Positions 1 through 55,920 of a stretch of 64,000 nucleotides of DNA are shown piece after piece. Within the stretch, counting starts at the first letter, position 1. Each line of letters begins with the position of its first letter. Below the pieces are notes generated by a model that was not told the DNA's origin, searched no databases, and worked only from the letters and a program-made list of their open reading frames with translations. The DNA lies in NCBI GenBank assembly GCA_944548615.1, contig OX155967.1, forward strand, positions 248,001 through 312,000, given 5' to 3'. The DNA comes from Micropterix aruncella (Eukaryota; Arthropoda; Insecta; Lepidoptera; Micropterigidae). Made by a program: the position numbers and the translations under genes.

Positions 1-108
1 AGACTGATAGACATCCCCGCAAGGTTGAAAGTATTAGTGGATGACGCTGAAAGGGGTCGTAGTGCCCATCGTGCGAGAGATGTACGAGCAAGACAGAGGG
101 CCGTCAGA

Positions 109-3690: not shown

Positions 3691-3900
3691 CCATATTACA
3701 CTATCCTTAACCCCTCAAATGTGAGGCGTCCCTTAAGGGATGCCTTGGCAAAATGTATACAAAATGTATATAAATTTATATAAATGTAAATATAAATGTA
3801 AATGTGCGCGCGCCGCTTTATAGTAATCCGCTCTATAGTAATGCTATAGCTATATAGTAAACCCCGCTCTATGTAAATGTAAATGTAAATGTACAATAAA

Positions 3901-22841: not shown

Positions 22842-23302
22842 ATGGCACTAAGGAAAACAAGGTCCGCAACTAAAAAACGCCAACAATCGCCTGACAAGAT
22901 CATCAAAGAAAATCCCATTCACAAAACTCCAGTTCATCTGAAAAAACAACAAACCGGAGAGTTCAATGCAGTAAACATGTCAGGACGTGAAGACTCGATA
23001 ACCAAAAAAAAATCGAACGACACTTCAAGGATCATCGAAGCATACGATATCGAAAATGAGGAAGAATCAGACAAGAGGAACAGAGGGAAATCTTAGGATA
23101 CCGCATCAGCGTCAGATATTTTCCAATTCACTGACATTGGAAAACATAGAACATTCCCCAGCATATACAAATGGAACCTGAAATACGACGGATCCACTCT
23201 CATCCTGGACTTCATCGATATAGTAGAGGATAAGGTGCAAGCTAGAGGAGTAAACGAAATGGAGCTCATCCAAGGTTTTACGGACCTACTAGAAGGATCA
23301 TC
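22842..23302 (+). pseudogene. Ty3/gypsy gag, 5' part (gypsy-2)
   Basis: It starts MALRKTRSATKKRQQSPDK. A nonsense TAG (23094-23096) is followed in the same frame by a retrotransposon gag segment (KWNLKYDGSTLILDFIDIVEDK ... MELIQGFTDLLEGS). The gag is then interrupted at 23303 by RLE-B and resumes near 24539 (RNNIENPKGDVN, then, in another frame, YQKRLENQMRNTKQ). Confidence 0.65.
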
Positions 23303-24538
23303 AGTGCCATTCGAGCCCTACCCAACACATCGCTATCAGATAAAATGGAATCAAGACTCGACTTCTACAAATCATTCCAAGTTGGTATCCGCACTAATAG
23401 AGCTGGACTGGGTATGGAAACAGCTAAGTCTGACAAAGAAGTACTGAAAGATTTTGCCCAGGAGGACATGGAGCAAGGTTTCAAACTGCACACCTTGAAC
23501 ATAGAAATGCAGAATGACTGGTTGACTGTGGGTGACTTCTGCATCCCCCCTGCATTGAAGTGGAAATCCCTAATATACAACTGGTCCCCTGAACTGCTTA
23601 AGTTCTACCTAAATGCGTTCCAACTTACTCTGCCTGACCCGAGTAACCTAGTTCGATGGGGGAAATCTACAAATAAAGTATGCCCGACGTGTAAGGAGTT
23701 CATAGGCACTGCCAAACATTTGCTATGTAGTTGCAAAATACTGCTTGACCGAGGCCATTATTCCTATCGCCATGATAAAGTCCTCCAAATCATCAGAGAG
23801 GCTATCAGCCTATCTATTGCACGGACCAGAAAAGGGCAAACGAGCAATGGCTTCAAGAAGGTCAACTTTGTAAAACCCGGAGCGAATAAGCTGCCTAAAG
23901 ATAGGACTAAACCGTCCTCAATTTTGGGAGCAGCAAAGGACTGGCAATTGCTGATGGACACACATGAGAAGCATTACCAAATGCCTTCAGAAATCTGTAC
24001 CACAGCTTACAGACCGGATATTCTCATATTCTCAATGACGACAAAGCATGTTGTACTTGTCGAACTTACAGTCTCATGGGAAAGCAACATACCGAAGGAC
24101 CACAACTTCAAAGTAAACAAGTACTGCAATTTAGTAGACCGGATAGTGAGAAACGGATTTAAGACTGATCTCTTCGCCGTGGATGTCGGAGCAAGAGGAC
24201 TACCGGCGAAGTCACTCTACAGCCTCTTCAAGAATTTAGGCCTGCCAAGAGCGGCGCTGAGCTCATACATGGAGAGAGCCTCGAAAGCGGCACTGGAGGC
24301 ATCCTACAGAATATGAATAGGTAGAGAGAGGGAGGTCGAGGGCGGGACTGGTGGTTCTCCGCGTCCTAGTCATCGCAGACTAGCTGATGAGGGCTTGTAG
24401 CGAGCCGAAACGTCACGCGCGCTGGAGAACTGCAGAGCGGCCGCTCACTAGTCCCACCTCGTCCGACACCCTCCTTTATTGCCAATGGGCCCAGATATGT
24501 TCGGTGAAGCCATTGAAAGCTGAGTTCAACACCTTCCT
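23303..24538 (+). mobile_element. RLE-B non-LTR element, 5'-truncated, inserted in gypsy-2 gag
   Basis: Homology with the long RLE-B copy on minus at 61363-63692 starts at AGTGCCATTCGAG and ends at ...AACACCTTCCT. The coding part (to 24316) has the knuckle CPTCKEFIGTAKHLLCSC, YSYRHDKVL, and the RLE motif YRPDILIF ... LVELTVSWES (family Pro changed to Ser) and KVNKYC. Ahead of the family stop, a Trp codon has become TGA (24314-24316). The 3' UTR follows after a hammerhead motif. Confidence 0.85.
24354..24430 (+). ncRNA. Hammerhead ribozyme candidate (RLE-B 3' end, copy 1)
   Basis: Core CTGATGA (24384-24390) and GAAA (24407-24410) are in register. Stem I is CTAGTC (24366-24371) with GACTAG (24378-24383), closed by a 6-nt loop. 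Stem II is GGCT/AGCC (24392-24395/24403-24406), or alternatively starts from G24391 with a bulge. Stem III is GCGT (24361-24364) with ACGT (24410-24413), one G.U pair. C24365 sits at the cleavage position, so cutting would fall between 24365 and 24366. An outer GTTCTCC/GGAGAAC pairing (24354-24360/24424-24430) extends the structure. In the uninterrupted copy the pol stop codon lies inside the stem II loop. Confidence 0.7.
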
Positions 24539-26460
24539 TATGGTTTCGCAGCATCAGACAGTACGTAACAACATAGAAAACCCTAAAGGCGACGTTAATA
24601 AATAAATATGAGTCACTCAATTACCAAAAGAGGCTCGAAAATCAAATGCGTAACACAAAACAAATCGCAGGAGAAACTATGCACGACTTTGTTACGCGCA
24701 TAGACACCATGAACACTAGACTGTCACCAAGACTACGAGATGCCACAATACTGGAGATAGTAAAACTGAACGTCCTTCCATTATACTATACTCTGCTGGA
24801 AACTACCAGATTGGACGATGTGGGAACATTGCTGGACTTGGCGAAAAATTTCGAACAATACGCGCTAGCCCCAGCACCAACTGCGACAAGCAGCATCCAG
24901 CATCGTCAATCCTCGCTTCCAAGATCGCAAAACAAAATCTCGATGGCAGCCATAGACGAGCAGTACGTATGCGCTAATAACAGTCAAGAAGAAATAGTTG
25001 CGATTCCGCACAACGACAGAGTCGGACCTCGCCACGACATACCGCCGCTACTCCACAGAAAATTCAACTACAGAAAACCCCCATTCGACAGACGTCAGCA
25101 AAACTTCGAGAAACACCACCAGAGACCATCACCTCAGGCATTATTATGCAAGAAATGGGAAAATCATGGGCACACGTTCAAAGAATGCCAGAAGTACCCG
25201 AATCCTATGTGCTTTAATTGCAAATTGCAACACATTCTAGCAATCTTGCGTAAGATGCAACGGGACACAACATATGCAGCAACAAAACCAGCCAAAAAAC
25301 GGGAACACCCACGGATACAGGCATTAGACGGGGCCATAACCGTGGAAAATTATACATTGTCAGCTAAACCACAATATAACGATACCCTTCCTGACGCAAA
25401 TATCAACATAATGGGAAAATCATACGAAGGACTGGTGGATACCGGCTGTGCAGTCTGCATATTGGGCGACGAAGTGCATAAACGTTACACGTCACTGGGA
25501 CAAAACATCAAAAAATCGGAAAACCGCATAGCAACGGCTGACGGAACACCGCAAGGAATCCTCGGATACCTAACTCTACCAGTGGAATACAGAGGAAAAT
25601 CGAAAGAAATAAATTTCCTCGTTTGCCCTACGATTAAAAAGGACGTAATTTTGGGGATCGAGTTCATCAGAAAATTCGACGTTAAAATCTCAATCGGAAA
25701 AAACCTCAACATTCAAGTGGCACAGATAAACAACACCACAAGCCAACAAATCGTGGACATAGAAGATCTTACGCCGGAACAACTGCGACGATTAGAACAC
25801 GTCAAGAAACTGTACGAAGACATTTTCTTCGAGAAACAAGGCCTAGGGAAAACACACCTATTGGAGCACAAAATTATCACCACTGGCAACCCCATCTGCC
25901 AAAAACCGTACCAATTATCGCCAGTAAAGGATAAATTAATAAAAGATGAGATTGACGAAATGCTGAAATTAGGAGTGATCACACCAATTAAATCCCCATG
26001 GTGCAACCCGATACTTGTCGTAACAAAGAAAGATGGCAGCCCAAGGGTATGTCTAGATTCGAGGAAATTGAACGAGATAACCGTAAAAAACCACTACCCG
26101 ATGGCATCATCGCAAAGAATTTTGGACAATTTAGGGAACGCACGCTACTTACCGTCAATTGATTTATCGAAAGCCTTCTGGCAAATTCCGCTAGAAAAAT
26201 CGTTGATTTACAAAACTGCATTTGCGATACCGGGAAAAGGCATGTTCGCCTTTGTACGCATGGCTTTTGGCGTCTGTAACGCATCTTCGGACCTCTCGGC
26301 ACTCATGGACCAGATCTTCGGACCTGAGTACGGAAATAAAGTATTCGCATACGCCGATGACCTCATAATTGCCTCAACAACGTACGACGAGCATATCGAC
26401 ACCCTATTACGGGTGAGGGAAAACTTAAAAGAAGCAGGCCTGACTGTAAACCTCAAAAAA
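24539..26460 (+). pseudogene. Ty3/gypsy gag C-terminus, protease and RT (gypsy-2)
   Basis: The frame from ATG 24646 encodes the gag C-terminal part (QIAGETMHDFVTRIDTMN), a damaged zinc knuckle (CKKWENHGHTFKEC, second Cys replaced by Trp; then CFNCK), a retropepsin with YEGLVDTGCAVCILG (DTG active site), and an RT with KDGSPRVCLDSRKLN, YLPSIDLSKAFWQI and the catalytic YADD (FAYADDLIIAS). It ends at a frame break at 26461; the RT thumb continues in another frame. Gag and pol are in one frame here, as in many insect Ty3/gypsy elements. Confidence 0.85.
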
Positions 26461-27700
26461 TGAGAATTTTGCAGGCCAGAATTAATATATCTCGGCTATA
26501 TTGTCGACAGACAAGGCTTGAGGACAGATCCAGGAAAAATAGCCTGCATCACGAATTTCCCGAGACCGGATCGAGTAAAACAAGTGAGGAGTTTCCTCGG
26601 TTTAACCGGATATTACCGCCGGTTCGTGAAGGATTACTCGAAAATAGCCGCACCACTGTGCATATTAACCGGTGGAAAGATAGGAGTAAAAACAACACGG
26701 ACAGAAGAGGCGGAAGAATCATTCATCATGCTAAAACAAGCTCTGACTACAGCCCCGATTCTGAAATGTCCCGATTTTAGCAAGGAATTCACAATAAACT
26801 GCGACGCAAGCGACATCGCCATAGGCGCGGCGTTAACTCAGTACGATGAAAAGGAAAAAATGGACTTACCCATATCGTATTTCTCGCAAATCCTCAACTC
26901 TGCGGAAAGACATTACTCGGTGAGCGAAAGAGAAATGCTGGCCGTCTTAAGGGCCGTTGTCCATTACAAAACGTATATATAAGCCACCAGATTTAAGGTA
27001 GTGACTGATCATAGCAGTTTGAAATGGCTCACAAAGCTGGAAAATCCCACAGGCAGACTGGCAAGGTGGAGCACATTGTTGTCACAATTTGATATGGAGA
27101 TCATTCATCGGAAAGGTAGCCTGAACGTGGTAGCAGACGCGATTTCCAGGATCCCATGCATGGCTCTATCAACAACATCCAGCGAAGACGAATGGTACAA
27201 TCGTACGTACGAGTCGGTACAAAACGATCCATATGCAGCACCGGAATATAAGATAGAGAACGATCAATTGTACAAATATCACGCTCCCAAGAGAGGCGAG
27301 AAACTGTTAAATCCATGGAGAATCGTTCCGAAGCTCGCAGACAGAAAAAACGCGATAAAGGAAATACACGAGGGAGAGTTCGCTGTTCATTTCGGCATAT
27401 TCAAGACTCTAAGGAAGCTGCAATCGTACTATTATTGGCCAGGAATGCAAAAACAGGTGAAATCCTACATAAAAAGCTGTGACACTTGTAAGGCCTATAA
27501 AATTCGAACAGGGCCAGCCCAGGGTCTGATGGTCACTCCAAAATCAGTGAAGACACCGATGCATACCATCAGCATCGACTTTATAGGGCCCGTTCCGAGA
27601 TCAATGAGTGGATTTACATACATACTTTCCGTGGTCGATGTATTCACTAAATTTTGCTGGCCTTTAAGAAAAGCCACATCGGCCAGGTACAATTTAAGAA
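26461..27700 (+). pseudogene. Ty3/gypsy RT thumb, RNase H and integrase N-terminus (gypsy-2)
   Basis: After the frameshift: VRSFLGLTGYYRRFVKDYS, RNase H (INCDASDIAIGA, EREMLAVLRAV), a nonsense TAA at about 26980, VTDHSSLKWL and VADAISRIP, then the integrase zinc module (HEGEFAVHFGIFKT ... CDTCKAYK) and the start of the rve core (ISIDFIGPVP, first Asp). The sequence is lost from about 27700, so the second Asp and Glu are absent. The element ends about 390 bp before the viral glycoprotein start; no LTR is recognisable between them. Confidence 0.85.
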
Positions 27701-27995
27701 GGAAAAACATCCAATAATTCACATAAAATCAAAATCTCCTAATAATTCACATAAAATCAAAATTCCACATATAAAACATTACAATCAATTGATAAAATTT
27801 TAAATCATTGCAATGACATTTTACAAGTAAAATCAAAGGTCGTAGCGCATCTCGTTAACGGACCAAATTCATTCCCGTTTTATAATTCATAAATTGTTAT
27901 ATTACAACAGTTCAGAGGACGCACACGCACTTCCTGCGAATACATTATTAAAGTCACTAAATATCATTAATAAAGAAAGGAAAAAGCTTCAATAT
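27701..27995. other. AT-rich spacer with a 27-bp direct repeat
   Basis: AATAATTCACATAAAATCAA occurs twice in tandem around 27711-27763. No coding sequence. Confidence 0.6.
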
Positions 27996-28060
27996 GTACA
28001 AAGTGAGATAGAATATAAATATATACATCGCATATATTTATATTCTATCTCACTTTGTAC
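27996..28060. repeat. Perfect 29-bp inverted repeat upstream of the glycoprotein gene
   Basis: 27996-28024 (GTACAAAGTGAGATAGAATA...) is the exact reverse complement of 28032-28060, with a 7-nt loop (ACATCGC). The right arm ends 30 nt before the glycoprotein ATG (28091). It contains a TATAAATA word at 28014-28021 that could serve as a core promoter, with a TCACTTT initiator-like site near 28050; this regulatory reading is tentative. Confidence 0.9.
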
Positions 28061-28090
28061 GAAGCAAGTTTCGCTCCTGTCAGTCAAAAC

Positions 28091-30073
28091 ATGAGGCTCA
28101 TCCCCAAGATGACGCTGTCAACGTTTCTGGTCAGCACGTGTCTTGTTTTGGCGGTGCGGGCAAAGACAACGACGGCCTCGCTCATAGGATATGACTGTAT
28201 CCACGAGGCCTCAAATGTCACTGCTATCTCATTATCGGAAGTTGCGGAATGCAAGCCTGTTGTCACACATCTGTCTCCGGAATCCGTCTACGTCCAGCTT
28301 CTCCAGCAGAAATTGTACGACCATGTCCGCGTCATCTCGTGTTTGGTTGAGCGCTCATCGATGATAACTCACTGCGGAATGCATTCGCACGCAACAATTG
28401 CCAACCATGGTCTGTCGATACTAGATCTCGTTCGAATAAGCAGAGACGAGTGTGACGCTATCGTTAGGCTCGGTATATACACTACAGACACCGGGGTAAC
28501 AATACGAGATCTTGCTGTCAACTCCTCCAGGTCAGTTCCTGTAACAGACGTGGGTCAGGTCTCTACTGCTGAAGGGACGTGCAAGGGGGCTTCCTATGTT
28601 TCAAGTGGCATCACTTATACAGACGTTGTGGTCACTAGTTCTTACCATATCACAGTGAAGGAGTCATACGCGGCGCTGGATTTGGAATCCCAGAAGATTC
28701 AGCTAGCATCCTCCTATACCTTTCCTCTCAGCACCGGGGAGGGAGTTGATCCAGAGTTAGGATATTCGTATTGGTCCTCCCGCTTGTCCGATGAGAGGTG
28801 CGGACATCATTCACATATGCCGCTTTATGATGGCATAGCGAGCGTATACGAGTCTTTGTCAGGAGAGAAGGCAATTGTAATAAACGCCACCTCGCATGCA
28901 ATGGCAGTCGGACTGAAAAGAGAGACCCTCATTTGTAACCATCATGGATATGAGACCGACCACCCGAGGCTCTCTCTAGTTGTGAGCCATACCAATATAT
29001 TCTCCTCGCGCGGAGCGCCCGTTAGCACAGACAATATTGACCTCTTCTTATACACTAACTCGAAATTTGTCTATATGGAGAGACATTTCCAAGGGCAGTT
29101 AGAAGACATGTACAATCTGTTGCAAGTGAAATTATGCAAGCAGCATCATCAAACGCTGAGTCAACTGATATCTTTGGCCTACGTATCACCCGAAGAATTT
29201 GCCTGGGCCTACACCCATGAACCTGGAGTAACTGCCGTTCTGAGAGGGGAATCCATTCACCTCATCCGTTGTGAACCGGTTATTACGCAGCTTCAGACAA
29301 CCAGCAAGTGTTTCCAGGAGCTTGTTGTCTCGTACAGGAACCAAACCAGGTTCCTGAAGCCTCGCACAAGGATTTTAGCCGAGATAGGAACGGAGGTAGA
29401 CTGCAACCCGCTGGCTCCTGTCATGTATAAGATCAATGAAGAGTGGATCCAGATGGGCCCTCACCCGACAAGGACGGCAGCCCCGGTGGTGCTAACGCCC
29501 GATCCGACAGGGCTGCAATGGAAATACTCCAAGATGACCAATCTGATGACATCCGGTTTATATTCAGCCGTGGAAGTAGAAAGTTACCAGCGGAAGCTCA
29601 TGTTTCCGTTGGAGAAGCCTGCTGTCGAGAACATTGTAACGTCCGTATTGAGGGGCCGAGACGTGGATCATCAATCTATTAGTCTGCAGTCCCTTCTCAC
29701 GGCTGACTCTATGGAGAACATACACACGTCTCTGTTCAAGAGGATGTATGGTTACTACTGGTCTTTTTCGGTGCAGCTCGCAGGTTTCTCCGGACTCATC
29801 TTCATTGTTATGACTATCAAGTTTATCTGCAATACAATCATTAACGGAACTATGCTCTATAAGACGTTTGGGCTCAGTGTTAAACTTGTGAGCGCAGTCT
29901 GGGGAACAATAGCGAAGCACATTCTCTATCTGGATAAGTCGAACAGCACAGGTTGTGAGGAACCGACGGAAGTAAGAGTTGAGTCGCAGACAACTCCCGA
30001 GAGCTCTGCCGACGACACAACGAGTGATCCAAGAGCATCGGTGAAGTACAATCCTCTCTACCCGCGCGTGTAG
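28091..30073 (+). CDS. Endogenous viral membrane glycoprotein (chuvirus-type G), full-length copy 1
   Basis: 660 aa from ATG 28091; the frame also extends upstream to 28055 without ATG. Residues 1-24 (MRLIPKMTLSTFLVSTCLVL...) form a signal peptide. The Cys-rich ectodomain begins GYDCIHEASNVTAISL and includes LIRCEPVITQL, FLKPRTRILAEIG and VMYKINEEW, a pattern I associate with jingchuviral (chuvirus) glycoproteins and their copies in arthropod genomes. A hydrophobic segment at about residues 560-580 (LAGFSGLIFIVMTIKF) is the membrane anchor, followed by a cytoplasmic tail of about 80 aa. Length fits a complete viral G, a type I membrane protein that mediates cell entry. No N or L gene is nearby. 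The family is assigned by eye; an env of retroelement origin is possible. No stop or frameshift is present. Confidence 0.65.
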   Translation: MRLIPKMTLSTFLVSTCLVLAVRAKTTTASLIGYDCIHEASNVTAISLSEVAECKPVVTHLSPESVYVQLLQQKLYDHVRVISCLVERSSMITHCGMHSHATIANHGLSILDLVRISRDECDAIVRLGIYTTDTGVTIRDLAVNSSRSVPVTDVGQVSTAEGTCKGASYVSSGITYTDVVVTSSYHITVKESYAALDLESQKIQLASSYTFPLSTGEGVDPELGYSYWSSRLSDERCGHHSHMPLYDGIASVYESLSGEKAIVINATSHAMAVGLKRETLICNHHGYETDHPRLSLVVSHTNIFSSRGAPVSTDNIDLFLYTNSKFVYMERHFQGQLEDMYNLLQVKLCKQHHQTLSQLISLAYVSPEEFAWAYTHEPGVTAVLRGESIHLIRCEPVITQLQTTSKCFQELVVSYRNQTRFLKPRTRILAEIGTEVDCNPLAPVMYKINEEWIQMGPHPTRTAAPVVLTPDPTGLQWKYSKMTNLMTSGLYSAVEVESYQRKLMFPLEKPAVENIVTSVLRGRDVDHQSISLQSLLTADSMENIHTSLFKRMYGYYWSFSVQLAGFSGLIFIVMTIKFICNTIINGTMLYKTFGLSVKLVSAVWGTIAKHILYLDKSNSTGCEEPTEVRVESQTTPESSADDTTSDPRASVKYNPLYPRV

Positions 30074-30117
30074 ACGTTCGTCCTTTCTCCTGCATATAAT
30101 CACTAAGTAGGTCATTA

Positions 30118-31878
30118 TTGTACGACCATGTCCGCGTCATCTCGTGTTTGGTTGAGCGCTCATCGATGATAACTCACTGCGGAATGCACTCGCACGCAAC
30201 AATTGCCAACCATGGTCTGTCGATACTAGATCTCGTTCGAATAAGCAGAGACGAGTGTGACGCTATCGTTAGGCTCGGTATATACACTACAGACACCGGG
30301 GTAACAATACGAGATCTTGCTGTCAACTCCTCCAGGTCAGTTCCTGTAACAGACGTGGGTCAGGTCTCTACTGCTGAAGGGACGTGCAAGGGGGCTTCCT
30401 ATGTTTCAAGTGGCATCACTTATACAGACGTTGTGGTCACTAGTTCTTACCATATCACAGTGAAGGAGTCATACGCGGCGCTGGATTTGGAATCCCAGAA
30501 GATTCAGCTAGCATCCTCCTATACCTTTCCTCTCAGCACCGGGAAGGGAGTTGATCCGGAGTTAGGATATTCGTATTGGTCCTCCCGCTTGTCCGATGAG
30601 AGGTGCGGACATCATTCACATATGCCGCTTTATGATGGCATAGCGAGCGTATACGAGTCTTTGTCAGGAGAGAAGACAATTGTAATAAACGCCACCTCGC
30701 ATGCAATGGCAGTCGGACTGAAAAGAGAGACCCTCATTTGTAACCATCATGGATATGAGACCGACCACCCGAGGCTCTCTCTAGTTGTGAGCCATACCAA
30801 TATATTCTCCTCGCGCGGAGCGCCCGTTAGCACAGACAATATTGACCTCTTCTTATACACTAACTCGAAATTTGTCTATATGGAGAGACATTTCCAAGGG
30901 CAGTTAGAAGACATGTACAATCTGTTGCAAGTGAAATTATGCAAGCAGCATCATCAAACGCTGAGTCAACTGATATCTTTGGCCTACGTATCACCCGAAG
31001 AATTTGCCTGGGCCTACACCCATGAACCTGGAGTAACTGCCGTTCTGAGAGGGGAATCCATTCACCTCATCCGTTGTGAACCGGTTATTACGCAGCTTCA
31101 GACAACCAGCAAGTGTTTCCAGGAGCTTGTTGTCTCGTACAGGAACCAAACCAGGTTCCTGAAGCCTCGCACAAGGATTTTAGCCGAGATAGGAACGGAG
31201 GTAGACTGCAACCCGCTGGCTCCTGTCATGTATAAGATCAATGAAGAGTGGATCCAGATGGGCCCTCACCCGACAAGGACGGCAGCCCCGGTGGTGCTGA
31301 CGCCCGATCCGACAGGGCTGCAATGGAAATACTCCAAGATGACCAATCTGATGACATCCGGTTTATATTCAGCCGTGGAAGTAGAAAGTTACCAGCGGAA
31401 GCTCATGTTTCCGTTGGAGAAGCCTGCTGTCGAGAACATTGTAACGTCCGTATTGAGGGGCCGAGACGTGGATCATCAATCTATTAGTCTGCAGTCCCTT
31501 CTCACGGCTGACTCTATGGAGAACATACACACGTCTCTGTTCAAGAGGATGTATGGTTACTACTGGTCTTTTTCGGTGCAGCTCGCAGGTTTCTCCGGAC
31601 TCATCTTCATTGTTATGACTATCAAGTTTATCTGCAATACAATCATTAACGGAACTATGCTCTATAAGACGTTTGGGCTCAGTGTTAAACTTGTGAGCGC
31701 AGTCTGGGGAACAATAGCGAAGCACATTCTCTATCTGGATAAGTCGAACAGCACAGGTTGTGAGGAACCGACGGAAGTAAGAGTTGAGTCGCAGACAACT
31801 CCCGAGAGCTCTGCCGACGACACAACGAGTGATCCAAGAGCATCGGTGAAGTACAATCCTCTCTACCCGCGCGTGTAG
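30118..31878 (+). pseudogene. Viral glycoprotein, N-terminally truncated copy 2
   Basis: An open frame of 586 codons begins at residue 75 of the full protein (TTG, no ATG) and lacks signal peptide and the first ectodomain cysteines. The first in-frame Met is 16 codons in. It carries the 'B' variant set: CAC (30189), Lys in STGKGVD, Thr in GEKTIV. Anchor and tail are intact. It is in a different frame from copy 1, because 1,805 is not a multiple of three. Confidence 0.9.
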
Positions 31879-31922
31879 ACGTTCGTCCTTTCTCCTGCAT
31901 ATAATCACTAAGTAGGTCATTA

Positions 31923-33683
31923 TTGTACGACCATGTCCGCGTCATCTCGTGTTTGGTTGAGCGCTCATCGATGATAACTCACTGCGGAATGCATTCGCAC
32001 GCAACAATTGCCAACCATGGTCTGTCGATACTAGATCTCGTTCGAATAAGCAGAGACGAGTGTGACGCTATCGTTAGGCTCGGTATATACACTACAGACA
32101 CCGGGGTAACAATACGAGATCTTGCTGTCAACTCCTCCAGGTCAGTTCCTGTAACAGACGTGGGTCAGGTCTCTACTGCTGAAGGGACGTGCAAGGGGGC
32201 TTCCTATGTTTCAAGTGGCATCACTTATACAGACGTTGTGGTCACTAGTTCTTACCATATCACAGTGAAGGAGTCATACGCGGCGCTGGATTTGGAATCC
32301 CAGAAGATTCAGCTAGCATCCTCCTATACCTTTCCTCTCAGCACCGGGGAGGGAGTTGATCCGGAGTTAGGATATTCGTATTGGTCCTCCCGCTTGTCCG
32401 ATGAGAGGTGCGGACATCATTCACATATGCCGCTTTATGATGGCATAGCGAGCGTATACGAGTCTTTGTCAGGAGAGAAGGCAATTGTAATAAACGCCAC
32501 CTCGCATGCAATGGCAGTCGGACTGAAAAGAGAGACCCTCATTTGTAACCATCATGGATATGAGACCGACCACCCGAGGCTCTCTCTAGTTGTGAGCCAT
32601 ACCAATATATTCTCCTCGCGCGGAGCGCCCGTTAGCACAGACAATATTGACCTCTTCTTATACACTAACTCGAAATTTGTCTATATGGAGAGACATTTCC
32701 AAGGGCAGTTAGAAGACATGTACAATCTGTTGCAAGTGAAATTATGCAAGCAGCATCATCAAACGCTGAGTCAACTGATATCTTTGGCCTACGTATCACC
32801 CGAAGAATTTGCCTGGGCCTACACCCATGAACCTGGAGTAACTGCCGTTCTGAGAGGGGAATCCATTCACCTCATCCGTTGTGAACCGGTTATTACGCAG
32901 CTTCAGACAACCAGCAAGTGTTTCCAGGAGCTTGTTGTCTCGTACAGGAACCAAACCAGGTTCCTGAAGCCTCGCACAAGGATTTTAGCCGAGATAGGAA
33001 CGGAGGTAGACTGCAACCCGCTGGCTCCTGTCATGTATAAGATCAATGAAGAGTGGATCCAGATGGGCCCTCACCCGACAAGGACGGCAGCCCCGGTGGT
33101 GCTGACGCCCGATCCGACAGGGCTGCAATGGAAATACTCCAAGATGACCAATCTGATGACATCCGGTTTATATTCAGCCGTGGAAGTAGAAAGTTACCAG
33201 CGGAAGCTCATGTTTCCGTTGGAGAAGCCTGCTGTCGAGAACATTGTAACGTCCGTATTGAGGGGCCGAGACGTGGATCATCAATCTATTAGTCTGCAGT
33301 CCCTTCTCACGGCTGACTCTATGGAGAACATACACACGTCTCTGTTCAAGAGGATGTATGGTTACTACTGGTCTTTTTCGGTGCAGCTCGCAGGTTTCTC
33401 CGGACTCATCTTCATTGTTATGACTATCAAGTTTATCTGCAATACAATCATTAACGGAACTATGCTCTATAAGACGTTTGGGCTCAGTGTTAAACTTGTG
33501 AGCGCAGTCTGGGGAACAATAGCGAAGCACATTCTCTATCTGGATAAGTCGAACAGCACAGGTTGTGAGGAACCGACGGAAGTAAGAGTTGAGTCGCAGA
33601 CAACTCCCGAGAGCTCTGCCGACGACACAACGAGTGATCCAAGAGCATCGGTGAAGTACAATCCTCTCTACCCGCGCGTGTAG
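31923..33683 (+). pseudogene. Viral glycoprotein, N-terminally truncated copy 3
   Basis: The same 586-codon open frame without a start codon. It carries the 'A' variant set of copy 1 at three sites (CAT, Glu in STGEGVD, Ala in GEKAIV) but the common base at the two silent sites private to copy 1, so it is not a simple duplicate of copy 1. Confidence 0.9.
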
Positions 33684-33727
33684 ACGTTCGTCCTTTCTCC
33701 TGCATATAATCACTAAGTAGGTCATTA

Positions 33728-35488
33728 TTGTACGACCATGTCCGCGTCATCTCGTGTTTGGTTGAGCGCTCATCGATGATAACTCACTGCGGAATGCACT
33801 CGCACGCAACAATTGCCAACCATGGTCTGTCGATACTAGATCTCGTTCGAATAAGCAGAGACGAGTGTGACGCTATCGTTAGGCTCGGTATATACACTAC
33901 AGACACCGGGGTAACAATACGAGATCTTGCTGTCAACTCCTCCAGGTCAGTTCCTGTAACAGACGTGGGTCAGGTCTCTACTGCTGAAGGGACGTGCAAG
34001 GGGGCTTCCTATGTTTCAAGTGGCATCACTTATACAGACGTTGTGGTCACTAGTTCTTACCATATCACAGTGAAGGAGTCATACGCGGCGCTGGATTTGG
34101 AATCCCAGAAGATTCAGCTAGCATCCTCCTATACCTTTCCTCTCAGCACCGGGAAGGGAGTTGATCCGGAGTTAGGATATTCGTATTGGTCCTCCCGCTT
34201 GTCCGATGAGAGGTGCGGACATCATTCACATATGCCGCTTTATGATGGCATAGCGAGCGTATACGAGTCTTTGTCAGGAGAGAAGACAATTGTAATAAAC
34301 GCCACCTCGCATGCAATGGCAGTCGGACTGAAAAGAGAGACCCTCATTTGTAACCATCATGGATATGAGACCGACCACCCGAGGCTCTCTCTAGTTGTGA
34401 GCCATACCAATATATTCTCCTCGCGCGGAGCGCCCGTTAGCACAGACAATATTGACCTCTTCTTATACACTAACTCGAAATTTGTCTATATGGAGAGACA
34501 TTTCCAAGGGCAGTTAGAAGACATGTACAATCTGTTGCAAGTGAAATTATGCAAGCAGCATCATCAAACGCTGAGTCAACTGATATCTTTGGCCTACGTA
34601 TCACCCGAAGAATTTGCCTGGGCCTACACCCATGAACCTGGAGTAACTGCCGTTCTGAGAGGGGAATCCATTCACCTCATCCGTTGTGAACCGGTTATTA
34701 CGCAGCTTCAGACAACCAGCAAGTGTTTCCAGGAGCTTGTTGTCTCGTACAGGAACCAAACCAGGTTCCTGAAGCCTCGCACAAGGATTTTAGCCGAGAT
34801 AGGAACGGAGGTAGACTGCAACCCGCTGGCTCCTGTCATGTATAAGATCAATGAAGAGTGGATCCAGATGGGCCCTCACCCGACAAGGACGGCAGCCCCG
34901 GTGGTGCTGACGCCCGATCCGACAGGGCTGCAATGGAAATACTCCAAGATGACCAATCTGATGACATCCGGTTTATATTCAGCCGTGGAAGTAGAAAGTT
35001 ACCAGCGGAAGCTCATGTTTCCGTTGGAGAAGCCTGCTGTCGAGAACATTGTAACGTCCGTATTGAGGGGCCGAGACGTGGATCATCAATCTATTAGTCT
35101 GCAGTCCCTTCTCACGGCTGACTCTATGGAGAACATACACACGTCTCTGTTCAAGAGGATGTATGGTTACTACTGGTCTTTTTCGGTGCAGCTCACAGGT
35201 TTCTCCGGACTCATCTTCATTGTTATGACTATCAAGTTTATCTGCAATACAATCATTAACGGAACTATGCTCTATAAGACGTTTGGGCTCAGTGTTAAAC
35301 TTGTGAGCGCAGTCTGGGGAACAATAGCGAAGCACATTCTCTATCTGGATAAGTCGAACAGCACAGGTTGTGAGGAACCGACGGAAGTAAGAGTTGAGTC
35401 GCAGACAACTCCCGAGAGCTCTGCCGACGACACAACGAGTGATCCAAGAGCATCGGTGAAGTACAATCCTCTCTACCCGCGCGTGTAG
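33728..35488 (+). pseudogene. Viral glycoprotein, N-terminally truncated copy 4
   Basis: A 586-codon open frame with the B variant set. It has a private change at 35195 that makes Ala to Thr in the membrane anchor (VQLTGFSG). Confidence 0.9.
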
Positions 35489-35532
35489 ACGTTCGTCCTT
35501 TCTCCTGCATATAATCACTAAGTAGGTCATTA

Positions 35533-37293
35533 TTGTACGACCATGTCCGCGTCATCTCGTGTTTGGTTGAGCGCTCATCGATGATAACTCACTGCGGAAT
35601 GCACTCGCACGCAACAATTGCCAACCATGGTCTGTCGATACTAGATCTCGTTCGAATAAGCAGAGACGAGTGTGACGCTATCGTTAGGCTCGGTATATAC
35701 ACTACAGACACCGGGATAACAATACGAGATCTTGCTGTCAACTCCTCCAGGTCAGTTCCTGTAACAGACGTGGGTCAGGTCTCTACTGCTGAAGGGACGT
35801 GCAAGGGGGCTTCCTATGTTTCAAGTGGCATCACTTATACAGACGTTGTGGTCACTAGTTCTTACCATATCACAGTGAAGGAGTCATACGCGGCGCTGGA
35901 TTTGGAATCCCAGAAGATTCAGCTAGCATCCTCCTATACCTTTCCTCTCAGCACCGGGAAGGGAGTTGATCCGGAGTTAGGATATTCGTATTGGTCCTCC
36001 CGCTTGTCCGATGAGAGGTGCGGACATCATTCACATATGCCGCTTTATGATGGCATAGCGAGCGTATACGAGTCTTTGTCAGGAGAGAAGACAATTGTAA
36101 TAAACGCCACCTCGCATGCAATGGCAGTCGGACTGAAAAGAGAGACCCTCATTTGTAACCATCATGGATATGAGACCGACCACCCGAGGCTCTCTCTAGT
36201 TGTGAGCCATACCAATATATTCTCCTCGCGCGGAGCGCCCGTTAGCACAGACAATATTGACCTCTTCTTATACACTAACTCGAAATTTGTCTATATGGAG
36301 AGACATTTCCAAGGGCAGTTAGAAGACATGTACAATCTGTTGCAAGTGAAATTATGCAAGCAGCATCATCAAACGCTGAGTCAACTGATATCTTTGGCCT
36401 ACGTATCACCCGAAGAATTTGCCTGGGCCTACACCCATGAACCTGGAGTAACTGCCGTTCTGAGAGGGGAATCCATTCACCTCATCCGTTGTGAACCGGT
36501 TATTACGCAGCTTCAGACAACCAGCAAGTGTTTCCAGGAGCTTGTTGTCTCGTACAGGAACCAAACCAGGTTCCTGAAGCCTCGCACAAGGATTTTAGCC
36601 GAGATAGGAACGGAGGTAGACTGCAACCCGCTGGCTCCTGTCATGTATAAGATCAATGAAGAGTGGATCCAGATGGGCCCTCACCCGACAAGGACGGCAG
36701 CCCCGGTGGTGCTGACGCCCGATCCGACAGGGCTGCAATGGAAATACTCCAAGATGACCAATCTGATGACATCCGGTTTATATTCAGCCGTGGAAGTAGA
36801 AAGTTACCAGCGGAAGCTCATGTTTCCGTTGGAGAAGCCTGCTGTCGAGAACATTGTAACGTCCGTATTGAGGGGCCGAGACGTGGATCATCAATCTATT
36901 AGTCTGCAGTCCCTTCTCACGGCTGACTCTATGGAGAACATACACACGTCTCTGTTCAAGAGGATGTATGGTTACTACTGGTCTTTTTCGGTGCAGCTCG
37001 CAGGTTTCTCCGGACTCATCTTCATTGTTATGACTATCAAGTTTATCTGCAATACAATCATTAACGGAACTATGCTCTATAAGACGTTTGGGCTCAGTGT
37101 TAAACTTGTGAGCGCAGTCTGGGGAACAATAGCGAAGCACATTCTCTATCTGGATAAGTCGAACAGCACAGGTTGTGAGGAACCGACGGAAGTAAGAGTT
37201 GAGTCGCAGACAACTCCCGAGAGCTCTGCCGACGACACAACGAGTGATCCAAGAGCATCGGTGAAGTACAATCCTCTCTACCCGCGCGTGTAG
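35533..37293 (+). pseudogene. Viral glycoprotein, N-terminally truncated copy 5
   Basis: A 586-codon open frame with the B variant set. It has a private Val to Ile change (TDTGITIRD, about 35716). Confidence 0.9.
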
Positions 37294-37337
37294 ACGTTCG
37301 TCCTTTCTCCTGCATATAATCACTAAGTAGGTCATTA

Positions 37338-39098
37338 TTGTACGACCATGTCCGCGTCATCTCGTGTTTGGTTGAGCGCTCATCGATGATAACTCACTGC
37401 GGAATGCACTCGCACGCAACAATTGCCAACCATGGTCTGTCGATACTAGATCTCGTTCGAATAAGCAGAGACGAGTGTGACGCTATCGTTAGGCTCGGTA
37501 TATACACTACAGACACCGGGGTAACAATACGAGATCTTGCTGTCAACTCCTCCAGGTCAGTTCCTGTAACAGACGTGGGTCAGGTCTCTACTGCTGAAGG
37601 GACGTGCAAGGGGGCTTCCTATGTTTCAAGTGGCATCACTTATACAGACGTTGTGGTCACTAGTTCTTACCATATCACAGTGAAGGAGTCATACGCGGCG
37701 CTGGATTTGGAATCCCAGAAGATTCAGCTAGCATCCTCCTATACCTTTCCTCTCAGCACCGGGAAGGGAGTTGATCCGGAGTTAGGATATTCGTATTGGT
37801 CCTCCCGCTTGTCCGATGAGAGGTGCGGACATCATTCACATATGCCGCTTTATGATGGCATAGCGAGCGTATACGAGTCTTTGTCAGGAGAGAAGACAAT
37901 TGTAATAAACGCCACCTCGCATGCAATGGCAGTCGGACTGAAAAGAGAGACCCTCATTTGTAACCATCATGGATATGAGACCGACCACCCGAGGCTCTCT
38001 CTAGTTGTGAGCCATACCAATATATTCTCCTCGCGCGGAGCGCCCGTTAGCACAGACAATATTGACCTCTTCTTATACACTAACTCGAAATTTGTCTATA
38101 TGGAGAGACATTTCCAAGGGCAGTTAGAAGACATGTACAATCTGTTGCAAGTGAAATTATGCAAGCAGCATCATCAAACGCTGAGTCAACTGATATCTTT
38201 GGCCTACGTATCACCCGAAGAATTTGCCTGGGCCTACACCCATGAACCTGGAGTAACTGCCGTTCTGAGAGGGGAATCCATTCACCTCATCCGTTGTGAA
38301 CCGGTTATTACGCAGCTTCAGACAACCAGCAAGTGTTTCCAGGAGCTTGTTGTCTCGTACAGGAACCAAACCAGGTTCCTGAAGCCTCGCACAAGGATTT
38401 TAGCCGAGATAGGAACGGAGGTAGACTGCAACCCGCTGGCTCCTGTCATGTATAAGATCAATGAAGAGTGGATCCAGATGGGCCCTCACCCGACAAGGAC
38501 GGCAGCCCCGGTGGTGCTGACGCCCGATCCGACAGGGCTGCAATGGAAATACTCCAAGATGACCAATCTGATGACATCCGGTTTATATTCAGCCGTGGAA
38601 GTAGAAAGTTACCAGCGGAAGCTCATGTTTCCGTTGGAGAAGCCTGCTGTCGAGAACATTGTAACGTCCGTATTGAGGGGCCGAGACGTGGATCATCAAT
38701 CTATTAGTCTGCAGTCCCTTCTCACGGCTGACTCTATGGAGAACATACACACGTCTCTGTTCAAGAGGATGTATGGTTACTACTGGTCTTTTTCGGTGCA
38801 GCTCGCAGGTTTCTCCGGACTCATCTTCATTGTTATGACTATCAAGTTTATCTGCAATACAATCATTAACGGAACTATGCTCTATAAGACGTTTGGGCTC
38901 AGTGTTAAACTTGTGAGCGCAGTCTGGGGAACAATAGCGAAGCACATTCTCTATCTGGATAAGTCGAACAGCACAGGTTGTGAGGAACCGACGGAAGTAA
39001 GAGTTGAGTCGCAGACAACTCCCGAGAGCTCTGCCGACGACACAACGAGTGATCCAAGAGCATCGGTGAAGTACAATCCTCTCTACCCGCGCGTGTAG
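37338..39098 (+). pseudogene. Viral glycoprotein, N-terminally truncated copy 6
   Basis: A 586-codon open frame with the B variant set and no private change seen. It is the only unit followed by the original 3' flank, with AATAAA 50 nt past its stop. Confidence 0.9.
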
Positions 39099-39148
39099 AC
39101 GTTCGTCCTTTCTCCTGCATATAATCACTAAGTAGGTCATTATGACTA

Positions 39149-39154
39149 AATAAA
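39149..39154 (+). terminator. Poly(A) signal AATAAA after the array
   Basis: AATAAA lies 50 nt after the last TAG, just outside the repeat unit. The 44-nt spacers inside the array contain none. Confidence 0.5.
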
Positions 39155-39189
39155 ATAGTTGTTTAAAATAATAGTAACGATGTTATAAA

Positions 39190-41900
39190 ATTAAATACAA
39201 TCGGAGCTGCCATGGAATTCACCGACCGGAGTCGGGCCCATCATAATAAAATATTTTTTTTACACTTCTGGGGGGTGAGCAGTGGATTCCGGACTTACGA
39301 ACCGGCTGTGGTAGGTTTAGGACAGCTGTCTTGCCACATGTGAGCGTTCACCTTACCACCCATTCACTCCCCCTTCGAAGCCATAGGATTTCAGATGCAG
39401 AAATCGCGGTTTTAGATAATTTTTCTAGAAAGGAGTTGATTATTTTCCTGGAGAGACCAAGATCTTTAAAAAGGTGAAACAAAGGTTTAGCTGGCAGGCC
39501 ATGAGCGCCTACTTCCACCGCGTGAAGGTGAACAGTGAAGCCGTTCCGGGTGATGGCATTTGCGAGGTCATGGTATTTATTTAATTTGTACTCGTGGTCT
39601 TTTGGGATATTTGATTCCCATGGAACAGTTAATTGTACGATAAGGACCATCTTCCGAGATAGAGAGTAAAGAGTTATATCTGGACGCAGGGCTGTGCATC
39701 CGAGACTTTCAGGGAATTTATACTGCTTAGAGACCGAATCGACCTCCATAATCCAATCTAAAGCTTTCTCGATTATTGAGAAAGGTTTTGCAGTGAGATG
39801 TTTTTTGCCTTTAGAGCCAACCTGCACAAACTGTATTGGGGGTTTGGAGGATACTGTGGAACCCTTGTTGGCACGAGCCACTGAGAGGCTAAGTACCTCG
39901 CGAATAACAGCAAGGACTTTGTCGTGGCGGTAAGTGTACCGTCCTTGATCCAAGGCCACCTTGCAGCCAGCTAGAATATGTCTAGCTGTGCAAGGAGTGT
40001 TGCTACAAAGGGGACATGAACTATCCTCGGCATAGCTCCAACGAGCGAGGTTACTGGGGTCTGGAAGTGTATGCTGAAAGGCATTTAAATAAAATTTCAG
40101 CATCTCTGGCGTCCAGTCATACAACATTACTTTCCAGTGCATTGGAGGAGGAATGCAAAAGTCTCCAATTGTTGTTCAATCATTCTGGCATTGAAGGCCA
40201 ATAGCATGAGCCATAATTTTGCTGTCGTAATCTCCCCGCAAGAGAGACTTCTTCAAGTCCACATCGCTCATGGTTGTACTGCCATACCCCAGACCAGTGC
40301 CATTCTGGCTGATTCCAGTAAGGAACTTTTTGTGGAAGTCAACGCGGGCTTGTAGATCATTTGACTCACTACGGCCACTTACTACGTGCTTCGATATTGC
40401 CGGATCCTTGGAATTACTTAGAATCGAATTTTTGGTTATTCTGGAGTTGGCGTAGAGCAGAGAGGGCAGTTTTAGAGCTAGCCCAAAATTGTGTTTGGAC
40501 CTGAAGAGAGTCGAGGGGTCAGCTGGTTTGGCTAAGGACAACCAGGATTTTAGACTAGCTGTCACCAGTGCATCCAGACGAGACAGTTAAATAAGAAAGG
40601 GCCATGACAAATGTGAAGTTAGATAGTTGTCATAGATCCAAGCCTTACGAGGGCCAGAAATTATCAATGCATCTATCTTTTCCAGGCAACTACTGAAATG
40701 TTCTATAACATGATCGCCAGAGAGGTCTTTTTCCTGGCAGGTGATTTTTCTCCCAAGAAATTTGAAGTGGTTATTTGGGTCTATAAGGGAGATAATAGAG
40801 CCCTTATAGACCAATTTTGGGTCATAGGACGTAAATTTTGTGTCTATGCTGGCGAGTCCAAGGCAAAAACATTTGGAGGGCTTCACTTTTATACAGCCTG
40901 ACCAGTTGCAGAACAGCTCCACTTCCTGTAATAGCAGGGAAAGCTGCTTGGGGCTCCTGGTGATAAAAGTTAGGTCGTCGGCAAAAGCGAGGCACGACGA
41001 TGTGTATTGGCCGTCTGTTTTAAAACGGTAACGCCACTTCTTGTCGAACTGGGTCAGGCTTTCCAGCAGTATATTAAAAACGATATTGAATATCGTCGGA
41101 GAAAGACAACAGCCCTGAAACAGTCCAATTGAATATGATATAGAGCGGGTAGTCCATTCTTGCGTTTTGACATGGAACGTCAGACAGTTGTAGTAGGAGG
41201 CTACAATGTCACGCACCACAGGTGGGAAGTTGTACCAGCGGAGCGCAAAGTGGAGGAGATTGTGCCGAACTGACCCAAAGGCATTCTCTAGGTCGAGCCA
41301 GCATACATTGATTTGGCGTTCGTGCTGTCTCGCATCCTTAATGGCAGCAGCCAAGAAAGAATTGTGCTCGAGGCAGCCTGAGACGCCACGCATGAAGCCT
41401 TTTTGTACTGACACTCCAAGGTACTCGTTCCGGTGCATGAATTCGCTCATCCTCATGTTGACTATGCCAAAAAAGATTTTGGCCACAGTATCTGTCAGAG
41501 CAATGGGCCGAGCGTTCTTTGGTCCGGTGCAAACTGGGACCTTCGGAATTAAGATGACTGTCGCTCGGCCGAAATTCTGTGGGACTACACCGCTATTCCA
41601 TATATGGCGGAAGATGGATCCTAAATATTGCAGAAGGCAGGGGCACTTTTTATACACTAAGTAGGGAATACCATCGGGACCTGGAGTAGAGCCGGCTTCC
41701 TTTTTATTTGATTTAAAATCTCATCTAGAGATGGGGGTTGAGAGGCGGAAGCTACTGTAGGCAGGTGCGGAGGTTTAATGCCCGGAGGAGGGCTGTACGT
41801 ATGGAGCCGCATTGGATCCTCATAAGTGGTCGAAAAGTATTCCGTGGCCATTTCTTCCGGGATTTGGATTGTGCCCTTAGCGGCAGACAAAACCTTTTTA
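39190..41900 (-). pseudogene. RLE-A non-LTR element, long copy (RT, knuckle, RLE, 3' UTR)
   Basis: On minus from about 41900: an N-terminal stretch (IPEEMATEYFSTTYEDP), a frameshift near 41690, GPDGIPY, RT motifs (ARPIALTDTVAKIF, QKGFMRGVSGCLEHN, WLDLENAFGSVRH, GLFQGCCLSP, and the catalytic FADD in LAFADDLTF), thumb, knuckle CPLCSNTPCTARHILAGC, and the endonuclease region to a stop at 39348, then the 3' UTR to about 39190. Lesions: TAA at 40587-40589 beside a deletion of about 21 bp that removed YDFTKTQ, TGA for Trp at 40176-40178, and the RLE motif reads LIVQLTVPWE instead of VELTVPWE, losing the catalytic Glu. It lies directly downstream of the glycoprotein array, in opposite orientation. 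Confidence 0.9.
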
Positions 41901-43489
41901 CTGAAGAAATTTACAGTAAATCCGTAAATAAAGAGTACTTGTTTGTTATACCATGTGTACCTAATCGGACACATAATTTAATTATGTACATAGTAATAGC
42001 AACTTAGAACATTAAAAAAGTTAGTGCTAGTTTATTTCTGTTTTTTTTATCAAAGAAAGGAAATAGTAAAAAATAAATAGATGTCATTTTGTTACACATT
42101 CCACTGAGGAATATAATATTGTAAAGTTCACATAAGGGTAATCAACTGACTAGAAAAGAGATATATATAGCTAATTGCTAATTGATTTGTAAAACAAGGA
42201 TATCACAATACCAACTCATGGTACAGTGAAATAAGCCTATCCTTTCTTACCACACCCATCCTAGTAGTTCCAGATAAAGAAGCATTAGTAATCTCGACAA
42301 GATGATGCCGCATACTTTTCTCAAATTCCAGAAAAATTGGAGCAATGATGCAGAAAGGCCATACACATGACGATAATACAATGATGAACCGATGCAGCAA
42401 ATACTGACCCAGTAATATAAAGGGATCTACACGCTAAATCAATTGAAATACGACATATTATGAACGATCGACCAAGGAAGAACACCATTTAGATTCAACT
42501 TGCGATCCGGATACTATAACTACAAGCAGTCATAGCAGGTAAAAGATACATTTTCCTAACATCTATAGACAATAGGACAGCAGACCAGATGATCAACATC
42601 AGAGGGCCATTAATCGCCGTACCAGCAGCGTACCCGATGACGTCCGTATACCAACAGGGGTAGATGTGCACCCAGGAAACCAGGAAATCAGCAAGTATCA
42701 TGCATTCCATGCATATCAAGCATCAATAGCATGCAGCTTTTTCCAGATTCTCATTGAGTGAAGGACACTACGAAAGTGCCATTCAATTAGTTAATCGTTC
42801 AAGTGAGAGTGCAATATTTTTTGAGTACAGTATCTTACGGTATATCAGTGAAAAGACATTTAAAACCGTTAAGCTACTTATTCAAGTTCCCGTATTAGCC
42901 AATTCTACACAGGACTTTTATAAGCAAAGTGTTCCTAAGTTGCCACCTATGAGGAAAATCAACCACGAAAATCTAATAGCACACAGGACTTTATTAAAGC
43001 GAAGTGTCAAATCATCAATTCGTCACTCGAATTATACGACATTATTTTACCATAAAAACCCAACATATAGACATTCATAATCTACTTCTTCACACACAGA
43101 CTTTAGTGCAAAGCAATTGGTGTAGTACAAGAAGAAATTTAATTAGATACAGTATAAAGACTATACTTCTAAGCAGAAATTGGCATCGTAGCACCGGAAT
43201 TCAAGAAATTAACGCTTGTTCCCTTTTCTTATCTATCGTAAGGTGACGAAAACCACGCAGCAACGGACACTTTGGAGTGTCATGAGAAACCGATGACAAG
43301 TCACTCTTCGAGGACACACGTAGACGTCAACAGGACCCAGGATGCGACCAGAAGAATGTCGTCGCGATCTACATATAAACTTGTAAATTGTAAAAAGAGC
43401 CATATCCAACCTATATATATTCACTTAACGTTAAAAAACGAGCAAGTGACATTCATGACTGAATCTCTAGCGACAAAATACCCGTGACA
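41901..43489. other. Unassigned stretch
   Basis: No recognisable gene or terminal repeat; short frames at 42203-43487 resemble no family known to me. Upstream RLE-A 5' sequence may extend into the first 80 bp. Confidence 0.4.
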
Positions 43490-55858: not shown

Positions 55859-55920
55859 AAAAAAAAAACCTAACCTAACCCAACCCAACCCAACCTAACC
55901 CAACCTAACCTAACCTAACC
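55859..55920 (+). repeat. Poly(A) followed by (CCTAA/CCCAA)n telomere-type repeat
   Basis: Ten A's (55859-55868) are directly followed by ten pentamers, CCTAA or CCCAA, to 55920. CCTAA is the complement of TTAGG, the insect telomeric repeat. Confidence 0.85.

What the first reader, a model, noticed from the sequence alone, without database searches (positions are those of the whole stretch)
28091..39142. Captured viral glycoprotein gene amplified into six perfect 1,805-bp tandem units
One complete G-type gene is followed by five copies of its last 586 codons, with identical unit length and only seven variable positions found by eye. Endogenous viral glycoproteins are usually single, scattered and decayed; a recent head-to-tail amplification with all frames open is unusual. 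It could be dosage selection (for example an Env-derived antiviral decoy), a piRNA source, or drift after one duplication plus unequal crossing-over.
Basis: partly seen in the sequence, partly recalled or inferred. Interest (0 to 1): 0.92.

Follow-up and report, generated by a model that had tools for sequence, protein, structure and literature searches.

The report
Six-fold tandem array of viral glycoprotein
In an insect chromosome, a captured gene for the surface protein of a chuvirus was copied head-to-tail six times, and the same genome holds further repeated virus genes, most of the detected ones on two chromosomes; the extra copies here look like recombination products, not working protein genes.

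Summary
In detail: six head-to-tail 1,805-bp units at 28312-39143, seven variable sites, all transitions. The protein is a chuvirus-type fusion glycoprotein (PF24664, 2.6e-183). Only copy 1 is complete; copies 2-6 lack start codon, signal peptide and residues 1-74. A gene-only viral insert landed in a Ty3/gypsy element; an empty gypsy copy elsewhere shows the site. A stretch including about 24-26 bp of that gypsy was then duplicated across 2 bp of microhomology and expanded, probably by unequal exchange. Substitutions (4 replacement, 3 silent) fit neutrality. 'Decoy protein dosage' is not supported; 'duplication plus unequal crossing-over' is. The surprise lies outside the window. All 68 scored matches to this family in the 1.08-Gb genome lie on two chromosome-scale contigs, with 21 of 24 mononegavirus L and 6 of 16 rhabdovirus N matches; the other L and N matches lie on three small contigs. 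Two more glycoprotein arrays exist, and on one chromosome 40 of 40 matches share a strand. That recalls a piRNA-cluster virus archive, which sequence alone cannot prove.

The parts
22001..28036 (+). Left part of a broken Ty3/gypsy element (protease, RT, RNase H, start of integrase); 22001 is where my comparison began, not a proven end. Interrupted by a non-LTR fragment at about 23303-24538 and by a deletion at about 27715-27744
   Evidence: Pfam; 80-90% DNA identity to gypsy copies on C14 and C8, 79% for 27744-28036
27996..28060 (.). Hairpin of 29 paired bases: the right arm is an inverted copy of the gypsy flank and forms the left junction of the viral insert (read as filler DNA)
   Evidence: Fold -39 kcal/mol, z -11.9; the local gypsy match ends at 28036
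28030..28036 (+). Left copy of GCATATA, repeated at 39117-39123: short target-site duplication or shared microhomology
   Evidence: Read from the sequences printed
28061..30092 (+). The viral insert as it stood before duplication (inferred extent): about 30 nt leader, G gene, 19 nt after the stop; no poly(A)
   Evidence: Boundaries from the empty-site comparison
28091..30073 (+). Copy 1: complete chuvirus-type glycoprotein gene, 660 aa, N-terminal hydrophobic segment, hydrophobic segment near 558-587
28312..30116 (+). Repeat unit 1
30117..31921 (+). Repeat unit 2 (identical to unit 6); frame lacks residues 1-74
31922..33726 (+). Repeat unit 3; shares three variants with unit 1
33727..35531 (+). 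Repeat unit 4
35532..37336 (+). Repeat unit 5
37337..39143 (+). Repeat unit 6, with 2 bp of boundary microhomology
39118..39183 (+). Right gypsy flank; its first 24-26 bp are part of the repeat unit, so the duplication followed the insertion. AATAAA at 39149 (AATAAA also occurs once in every unit, first at 28879)
39184..41909 (-). Non-LTR retroelement fragments (RT, zf-RVT) between the two right-hand gypsy pieces
41910..42814 (+). Gypsy element resumes
   Evidence: 81% identity to L061

Best explanation
A cDNA of a chuvirus-type glycoprotein (G) transcript was inserted into the 3' part of an old, broken Ty3/gypsy element in an insect (order unsettled; Lepidoptera or Trichoptera are my guess). 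Later, a 1,805-bp stretch from codon 75 of G to about 24-26 bp inside the gypsy was duplicated head-to-tail by illegitimate joining across 2 bp. Homologous unequal exchange then raised it to six units, including one step that copied a two-unit block. SHOWN in sequence: the array, the empty site, insertion before duplication, truncation of copies 2-6, no selection signal among copies (low power). INFERRED: mRNA-derived cDNA, end-joining insertion, unequal exchange. The extra copies most likely make no functional glycoprotein; if the array has an effect it acts through RNA, for example as piRNA precursor, since the related viral sequences of this genome are concentrated and repeatedly amplified.
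For: Array and variants. Family and fold. The gypsy on C14 matches both flanks with the insert between, and the unit's 3' end is gypsy. 2-bp junction microhomology (sequences). Units 1 and 3 share three variants against 2, 4, 5, 6, as a dimer copy would give. 4 replacement to 3 silent changes, neutral expectation 66% replacement, P(4 or fewer)=0.44. Relatives at 63-90% aa identity have saturated silent sites, and two incomplete fragments at different loci differ with dN/dS 0.038 over 207 codons, so constraint acted before insertion, most simply in a replicating virus lineage. Separate arrays of related genes elsewhere in the genome.
Against: No reads: copy number rests on the assembly. Unequal exchange is not the only way to add units; replication slippage or re-insertion of a circle would look alike. 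The gypsy tail of the unit is short, and the right-flank match is 85% over 66 columns. The empty gypsy is a relative, not the orthologous locus, and keeps 2.4 kb that the window copy has lost. No RNA data, so expression of copy 1 is not excluded.
Confidence: 0.72

Rival explanations
1. Virus archive: the array was kept or amplified because it yields piRNAs against related chuviruses; copy number raises output. It would be one of several amplified viral sequences in piRNA-producing regions.
For: Of 108 matches to the G, L and N families, 95 lie on C24 and C32 and 10 on the small contigs C25 and C26; merged into 19 loci, 16 lie on C24 or C32, one each on C25, C26 and C211. 40 of 40 matches on C32 are on one strand. 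Repeated arrays. In Aedes such elements are enriched in piRNA clusters (PMC9673329, abstract in listing); mosquito ovarian piRNA clusters hold antisense BEL/Pao insertions, some BEL/Pao carrying chuvirus-type envelopes (PMC13172572, passages); a cluster of transgene insertions in flies can be converted to a piRNA cluster (PMC6420265, abstract in listing).
Against: No small-RNA data. The strand bias is complete by match but, merged into 5 loci, two-sided P is 0.06. C24 is mixed in strand (39 +, 16 -). Array A lies near the end of C24, away from the clusters at 22-27 Mb. Totivirus-type and Bunya RdRp searches gave no match, so a general virus archive is not shown.
Confidence: 0.35
2. Selection for more glycoprotein (Env-derived decoy or receptor blocker).
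For: Copy 1 is an intact 660-aa gene with N-terminal and C-terminal hydrophobic segments.
Against: Copies 2-6 lack start, signal region and residues 1-74, with 43 nt from stop to next unit. Copies 1 and 3 carry A261 where all ten compared relatives have T (nine) or S (one). Neutral substitution pattern.
Confidence: 0.07
3. The G gene is the Env of an active LTR retroelement, as in BEL/Pao 'Anakin'.
For: G lies downstream of gypsy pol on the same strand; at L009 a gypsy RT/RNase H fragment runs directly into a G fragment.
Against: The gypsy copy on C14 lacks G at that site. 73 gypsy matches lie on 31 contigs, whereas G lies on two; the gypsy list is the best 72 scored of 3352 candidates. The gypsy here has stops and a deletion. 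LTRs were not searched for.
Confidence: 0.03
4. Assembly artefact: one copy repeated by the assembler.
For: No reads could be checked.
Against: Seven structured single-base differences with no indel; a chromosome-scale contig without N here; other arrays with other units.
Confidence: 0.05

Closest known systems
Jingchuvirales glycoprotein EVEs of arthropods (PMC10084718; passages read)
   Same: Chuvirus-type G in insect genomes, several flanked by fragmentary gypsy or BEL/Pao; 939 copies in 38 species reported there
   Different: Here tandem head-to-tail arrays; the word 'tandem' does not occur in the main text of that paper (supplements not seen)
Anakin: BEL/Pao elements with a chuvirus glycoprotein, in mosquitoes (PMC7642597; passages read)
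   Same: Chuvirus G downstream of pol in an LTR element
   Different: Here gypsy, not BEL/Pao; G is an insertion into a broken element, with an empty relative known
nrEVEs in Aedes piRNA clusters (PMC9673329; abstract in listing)
   Same: Non-retroviral RNA-virus pieces concentrated in few genomic regions
   Different: piRNA production untested here; amplification into arrays is the distinguishing trait
Class III viral fusion proteins (herpesvirus gB, VSV G)

Membership tests
Chuvirus-type glycoprotein (PF24664 Monjiviricetes_fusion) | Whole-length match to the curated profile | tested here: met
   610.9 bits, cut-off 27, residues 17-659 of 660
Chuvirus-type glycoprotein (PF24664 Monjiviricetes_fusion) | Class III fusion fold | tested here: met
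Chuvirus-type glycoprotein (PF24664 Monjiviricetes_fusion) | Signal segment, ectodomain and TM in one frame | tested here: met
   Copy 1 only, by hydropathy; copies 2-6 lack the N-terminus
Endogenous viral element (non-retroviral) | Viral gene embedded in host DNA with a recognisable insertion site | tested here: met
   Gypsy flanks on both sides and an empty relative
Anakin or other Env-bearing LTR element | G carried by the element and multiplied with it | tested here: not met
   The C14 gypsy lacks G at that site; G and gypsy differ in genomic distribution
Anakin or other Env-bearing LTR element | Complete element between two LTRs | not tested
   LTRs were not searched for; pol here is broken by stops and a deletion
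Errantivirus-type Env (Baculo_F) | PF12259 match | tested here: not met
   The only family listed for the array protein at E 0.1 or better is PF24664
piRNA-cluster nrEVE | Small RNAs from the locus | not testable with these tools
   No small-RNA data
piRNA-cluster nrEVE | Concentration in few regions with strand bias | tested here: inconclusive
   16 of 19 merged loci on C24 or C32, two more on C25 and C26; C32 40 of 40 matches on + but only 5 merged loci; C24 mixed

The most novel reading that the evidence does not exclude
This insect lineage keeps a virus archive, mostly on two chromosomes. cDNAs of mononegavirus-type RNA viruses are caught in retroelement-rich loci there and repeatedly copy-amplified (three G arrays of 6, about 9 and 10 copies; N in groups of 7 and 3 on small contigs), so that array length sets the dose of antiviral piRNA.
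Probability: 0.2. Interest if true: 0.85.

Novelty: new variant of a known kind. Interest (0 to 1): 0.6.

Why it matters
Endogenous chuvirus glycoproteins are common in insects, but recurrent head-to-tail arrays of them in one genome did not show in the listings and passages that I saw. The genome gives a natural test of whether viral copy number in such regions is selected or drifts: three G arrays of different spacing (1.8, 2.6 and 9.7 kb or more) and different sequence are present together. The insertion itself is unusually readable: an empty relative of the site, an inverted filler, a short repeat at the ends, no poly(A).

Tried and rejected
Env of the neighbouring gypsy: rejected by the empty copy. 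Selection on the protein copies: no signal with 7 changes, low power. 'All frames open' as evidence of function: rejected. Retroposition by a LINE with a poly(A) tail: no tail at either junction. Homology to solved structures by sequence: one match at E 0.91 (PhoE), taken as chance. Relatives in IMG/VR: 2 pattern matches, none confirmed. Rfam: no hit in the window and none for a suspected hammerhead at 24300-24600. Totivirus-type RdRP_4 and Bunya_RdRp in the genome: no match; the tool warns that this does not prove absence. A Baculo_F distribution control did not complete. Host naming: the COI search puts Lepidoptera first among named hits, with Trichoptera, Coleoptera and Hemiptera close behind; nearest named species 82%, an unnamed ENA contig 90%, so the order is not settled; the hAT protein search named no host either (best hit unnamed, 96%). 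The COX1 control is weak: 0 of 21 nuclear matches on C24/C32 where about 1.2 are expected. Caps: the gypsy search scored 72 of 3352 candidates, PF24664 68 of 77, the G protein search 67 of 70, L 26 of 26, N 17 of 17. PMC8982415 (a shrimp EVE paper in the listing) was not read.
Full report
THE OBSERVATION. The array is real in the assembly. Self-comparison at offset 1805 gives a single array at 28312-39143, 6.001 units, without indels; seven columns vary, all by transitions. Units 2 and 6 are identical; the largest difference between units is 6 of 1805. Copy 1 continues upstream to an ATG at 28091 and encodes 660 aa. Units 2-6 begin at residue 75, so the listed 586-codon frames start inside the protein, lack the N-terminal hydrophobic segment, and have their first in-frame ATG at codon 17. 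From each stop to the next unit there are 43 nt.

HOW IT GOT THERE. Upstream lies a broken Ty3/gypsy pol. Gypsy copies on C14 and C8 match window 22001-23303 and 24538-27682 at 80-90%. The 3' part of the C14 copy (L061) matches window 27680-27715, 27744-28036, 39120-39184 and 41910-42814 at gypsy positions 501-536, 2938-3216, 3213-3277 and 3289-4185. Between 28036 and 39120 the gypsy coordinates adjoin, so the C14 copy shows the empty site and the glycoprotein array lies inside a gypsy, not the other way round; the window copy has also lost about 2.4 kb of gypsy near 27715-27744. At the left junction there is a hairpin at 27996-28060 whose right arm is an inverted copy of the gypsy flank (fold -39 kcal/mol, z -11.9). 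GCATATA stands at both ends (28030-28036 and 39117-39123), and neither end has poly(A). This reads as filler-bearing end joining, or as template switching by a retroelement polymerase; I cannot separate the two. The original insert, about 28061-30092, holds little but the G gene, as a G-mRNA cDNA would (inference). At L009, a gypsy RT/RNase H fragment runs straight into a G fragment on the same strand, a second hint that LTR elements take part.

HOW IT GREW. The last 24-26 bp of the repeat unit (to 39143) are gypsy sequence, so duplication followed insertion. The junction between units shares 2 bp with both parents (sequences), which points to illegitimate joining for the first duplication. 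Units 1 and 3 share three variants against units 2, 4, 5 and 6, which a two-unit block copy followed by single-unit gains would produce (inference). At residue 261 the ten relatives compared have T (nine) or S (one) and units 2, 4, 5 and 6 have T; units 1 and 3 have A. At residue 217 units 1 and 3 have E; L009 and P0001 have K, other relatives vary, and one (P0013) has E. So the only complete copy carries a derived residue at a conserved site. The tally of 4 replacement and 3 silent changes fits neutrality (expected 66% replacement among transitions, P 0.44), with little power. With a recalled insect rate near 3e-9 per site per generation, 0-6 differences per unit means at most about half a million generations since the units last shared an ancestor, gene conversion aside.

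SELECTION BEFORE INSERTION. Against fragments elsewhere in the genome the protein is 63-90% identical (L009, L025, L026, L027), yet silent sites are saturated (pS 0.83-0.94). L009 and L025, two incomplete fragments on different chromosomes, differ with dN/dS 0.038 over 207 codons. Constraint of that kind on pieces now dead means that they diverged in a replicating lineage, most simply exogenous chuviruses captured several times.

THE GENOME-WIDE PATTERN. The window is G000:C24:248001-312000 of a 1.08-Gb assembly. The PF24664 profile finds 68 matches, 41 on C24 (32.4 Mb) and 27 on C32 (28.6 Mb). Mononegavirus L (PF00946) gives 24: 10 on C24, 11 on C32, 3 on C25. Rhabdovirus N (PF00945) gives 16: 4 on C24, 2 on C32, 7 on C26, 3 on C211. 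C25 (0.20 Mb) and C26-C29 (0.10-0.16 Mb) are listed right after C24 and may be loose pieces of that chromosome (a guess from the order); C211 is 71 kb. Merged at 100 kb, the 108 matches make 19 loci: 16 on C24 or C32, one each on C25, C26 and C211. C24-C29 and C32 are 5.7% of the genome; the loci are not fully independent, so the tiny binomial P printed there is not a true probability. By contrast 73 gypsy pol matches lie on 31 contigs, 5 of them on C24 or C32, and 0 of 21 nuclear COX1 matches lie there (1.2 expected, a weak control). On C32 all 40 matches, between 3.42 and 5.51 Mb, are on the + strand; as 5 merged loci the two-sided P is 0.06. C24 is mixed, 39 to 16.

OTHER ARRAYS. Array B, C24:26.963-27.099 Mb, holds nine G copies of another lineage (51% aa to array A) in repeated DNA that is 98.5-99.98% identical in the pieces over 1.5 kb; copy spacing runs from 9.7 to 24.5 kb, three of eight being 9.7-9.8 kb. 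One block scanned also has gypsy pol and a Baculo_F-type frame. Array C, C32:4.558-4.597 Mb, has ten G copies by my count of the matches, spaced 2.6 kb, or 3.9 kb where a copy is split by an insert of about 1.3 kb (one gap is about 12 kb); a 6,544-bp double unit recurs, and four frames of 695 codons are open. C26 holds seven N matches in 68 kb at uneven spacing (4.4-23.8 kb) and C211 three, 6.4-6.5 kb apart; whether these are tandem units was not examined. Units differ in length and content, so I take the G arrays as separate amplifications.

WHAT IT DOES. Protein dosage is unlikely for the reasons above. The array could be plain drift, or an RNA-level trait. Aedes nrEVEs are enriched in piRNA clusters (PMC9673329) and a cluster of transgene insertions in flies can be converted to a piRNA cluster (PMC6420265); both seen as abstracts in a listing. 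Mosquito ovarian piRNA clusters hold antisense BEL/Pao insertions, and some BEL/Pao carry chuvirus-type envelopes (PMC13172572, passages). Without small RNA this stays a rival at 0.35.

COMPARED WITH THE KNOWN. Chuvirus-type G genes in insect genomes are well described: 939 copies in 38 species (PMC10084718, passages), and 409 in mosquitoes, 263 of them associated with BEL/Pao elements (PMC7642597, passages). 'Tandem' does not occur in the main text of either. Searches for tandem EVE arrays listed none that I could recognise for chuvirus glycoproteins; I judged by titles and opening abstracts, saw 12 of 108 and 12 of 175 papers in the last two, and most subscription papers are not held. I file it as a new variant of a known kind.

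Noticed in passing
G000:C24:26963000-27099000 (L011-L024): Second G array: nine copies of another lineage in repeated blocks (smallest recurrent spacing about 9.7 kb), with gypsy pol and a Baculo_F-type frame in the block scanned
   Followed up: partly
G000:C32:4558000-4597300 (L029, L030): Third G array: ten copies at 2.6-kb spacing with a two-copy higher-order unit of 6,544 bp, like satellite DNA
   Followed up: partly
G000:C26:4032-71689 and C211:3162-16464: Rhabdovirus-type N matches in groups of seven and three on small contigs
   Followed up: no
G000:C32:3420000-5514000: All 40 G, L and N matches on one strand
   Followed up: partly
G000:C24:14732430-14738480: N and L matches side by side on one strand, the L frame listed with a long open stretch; not read through
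   Followed up: no
window 55867-55920: Interstitial (CCTAA)n, an insect-type telomere repeat (name recalled), after a run of A, as at the end of a telomere-targeting LINE
   Followed up: no
window 24380-24440: Sequence resembling a hammerhead ribozyme core (recalled motif) after a zf-RVT frame; Rfam gave no match
   Followed up: partly
window 1-969: piggyBac-type transposase frame (DDE_Tnp_1_7) running off the window edge
   Followed up: no
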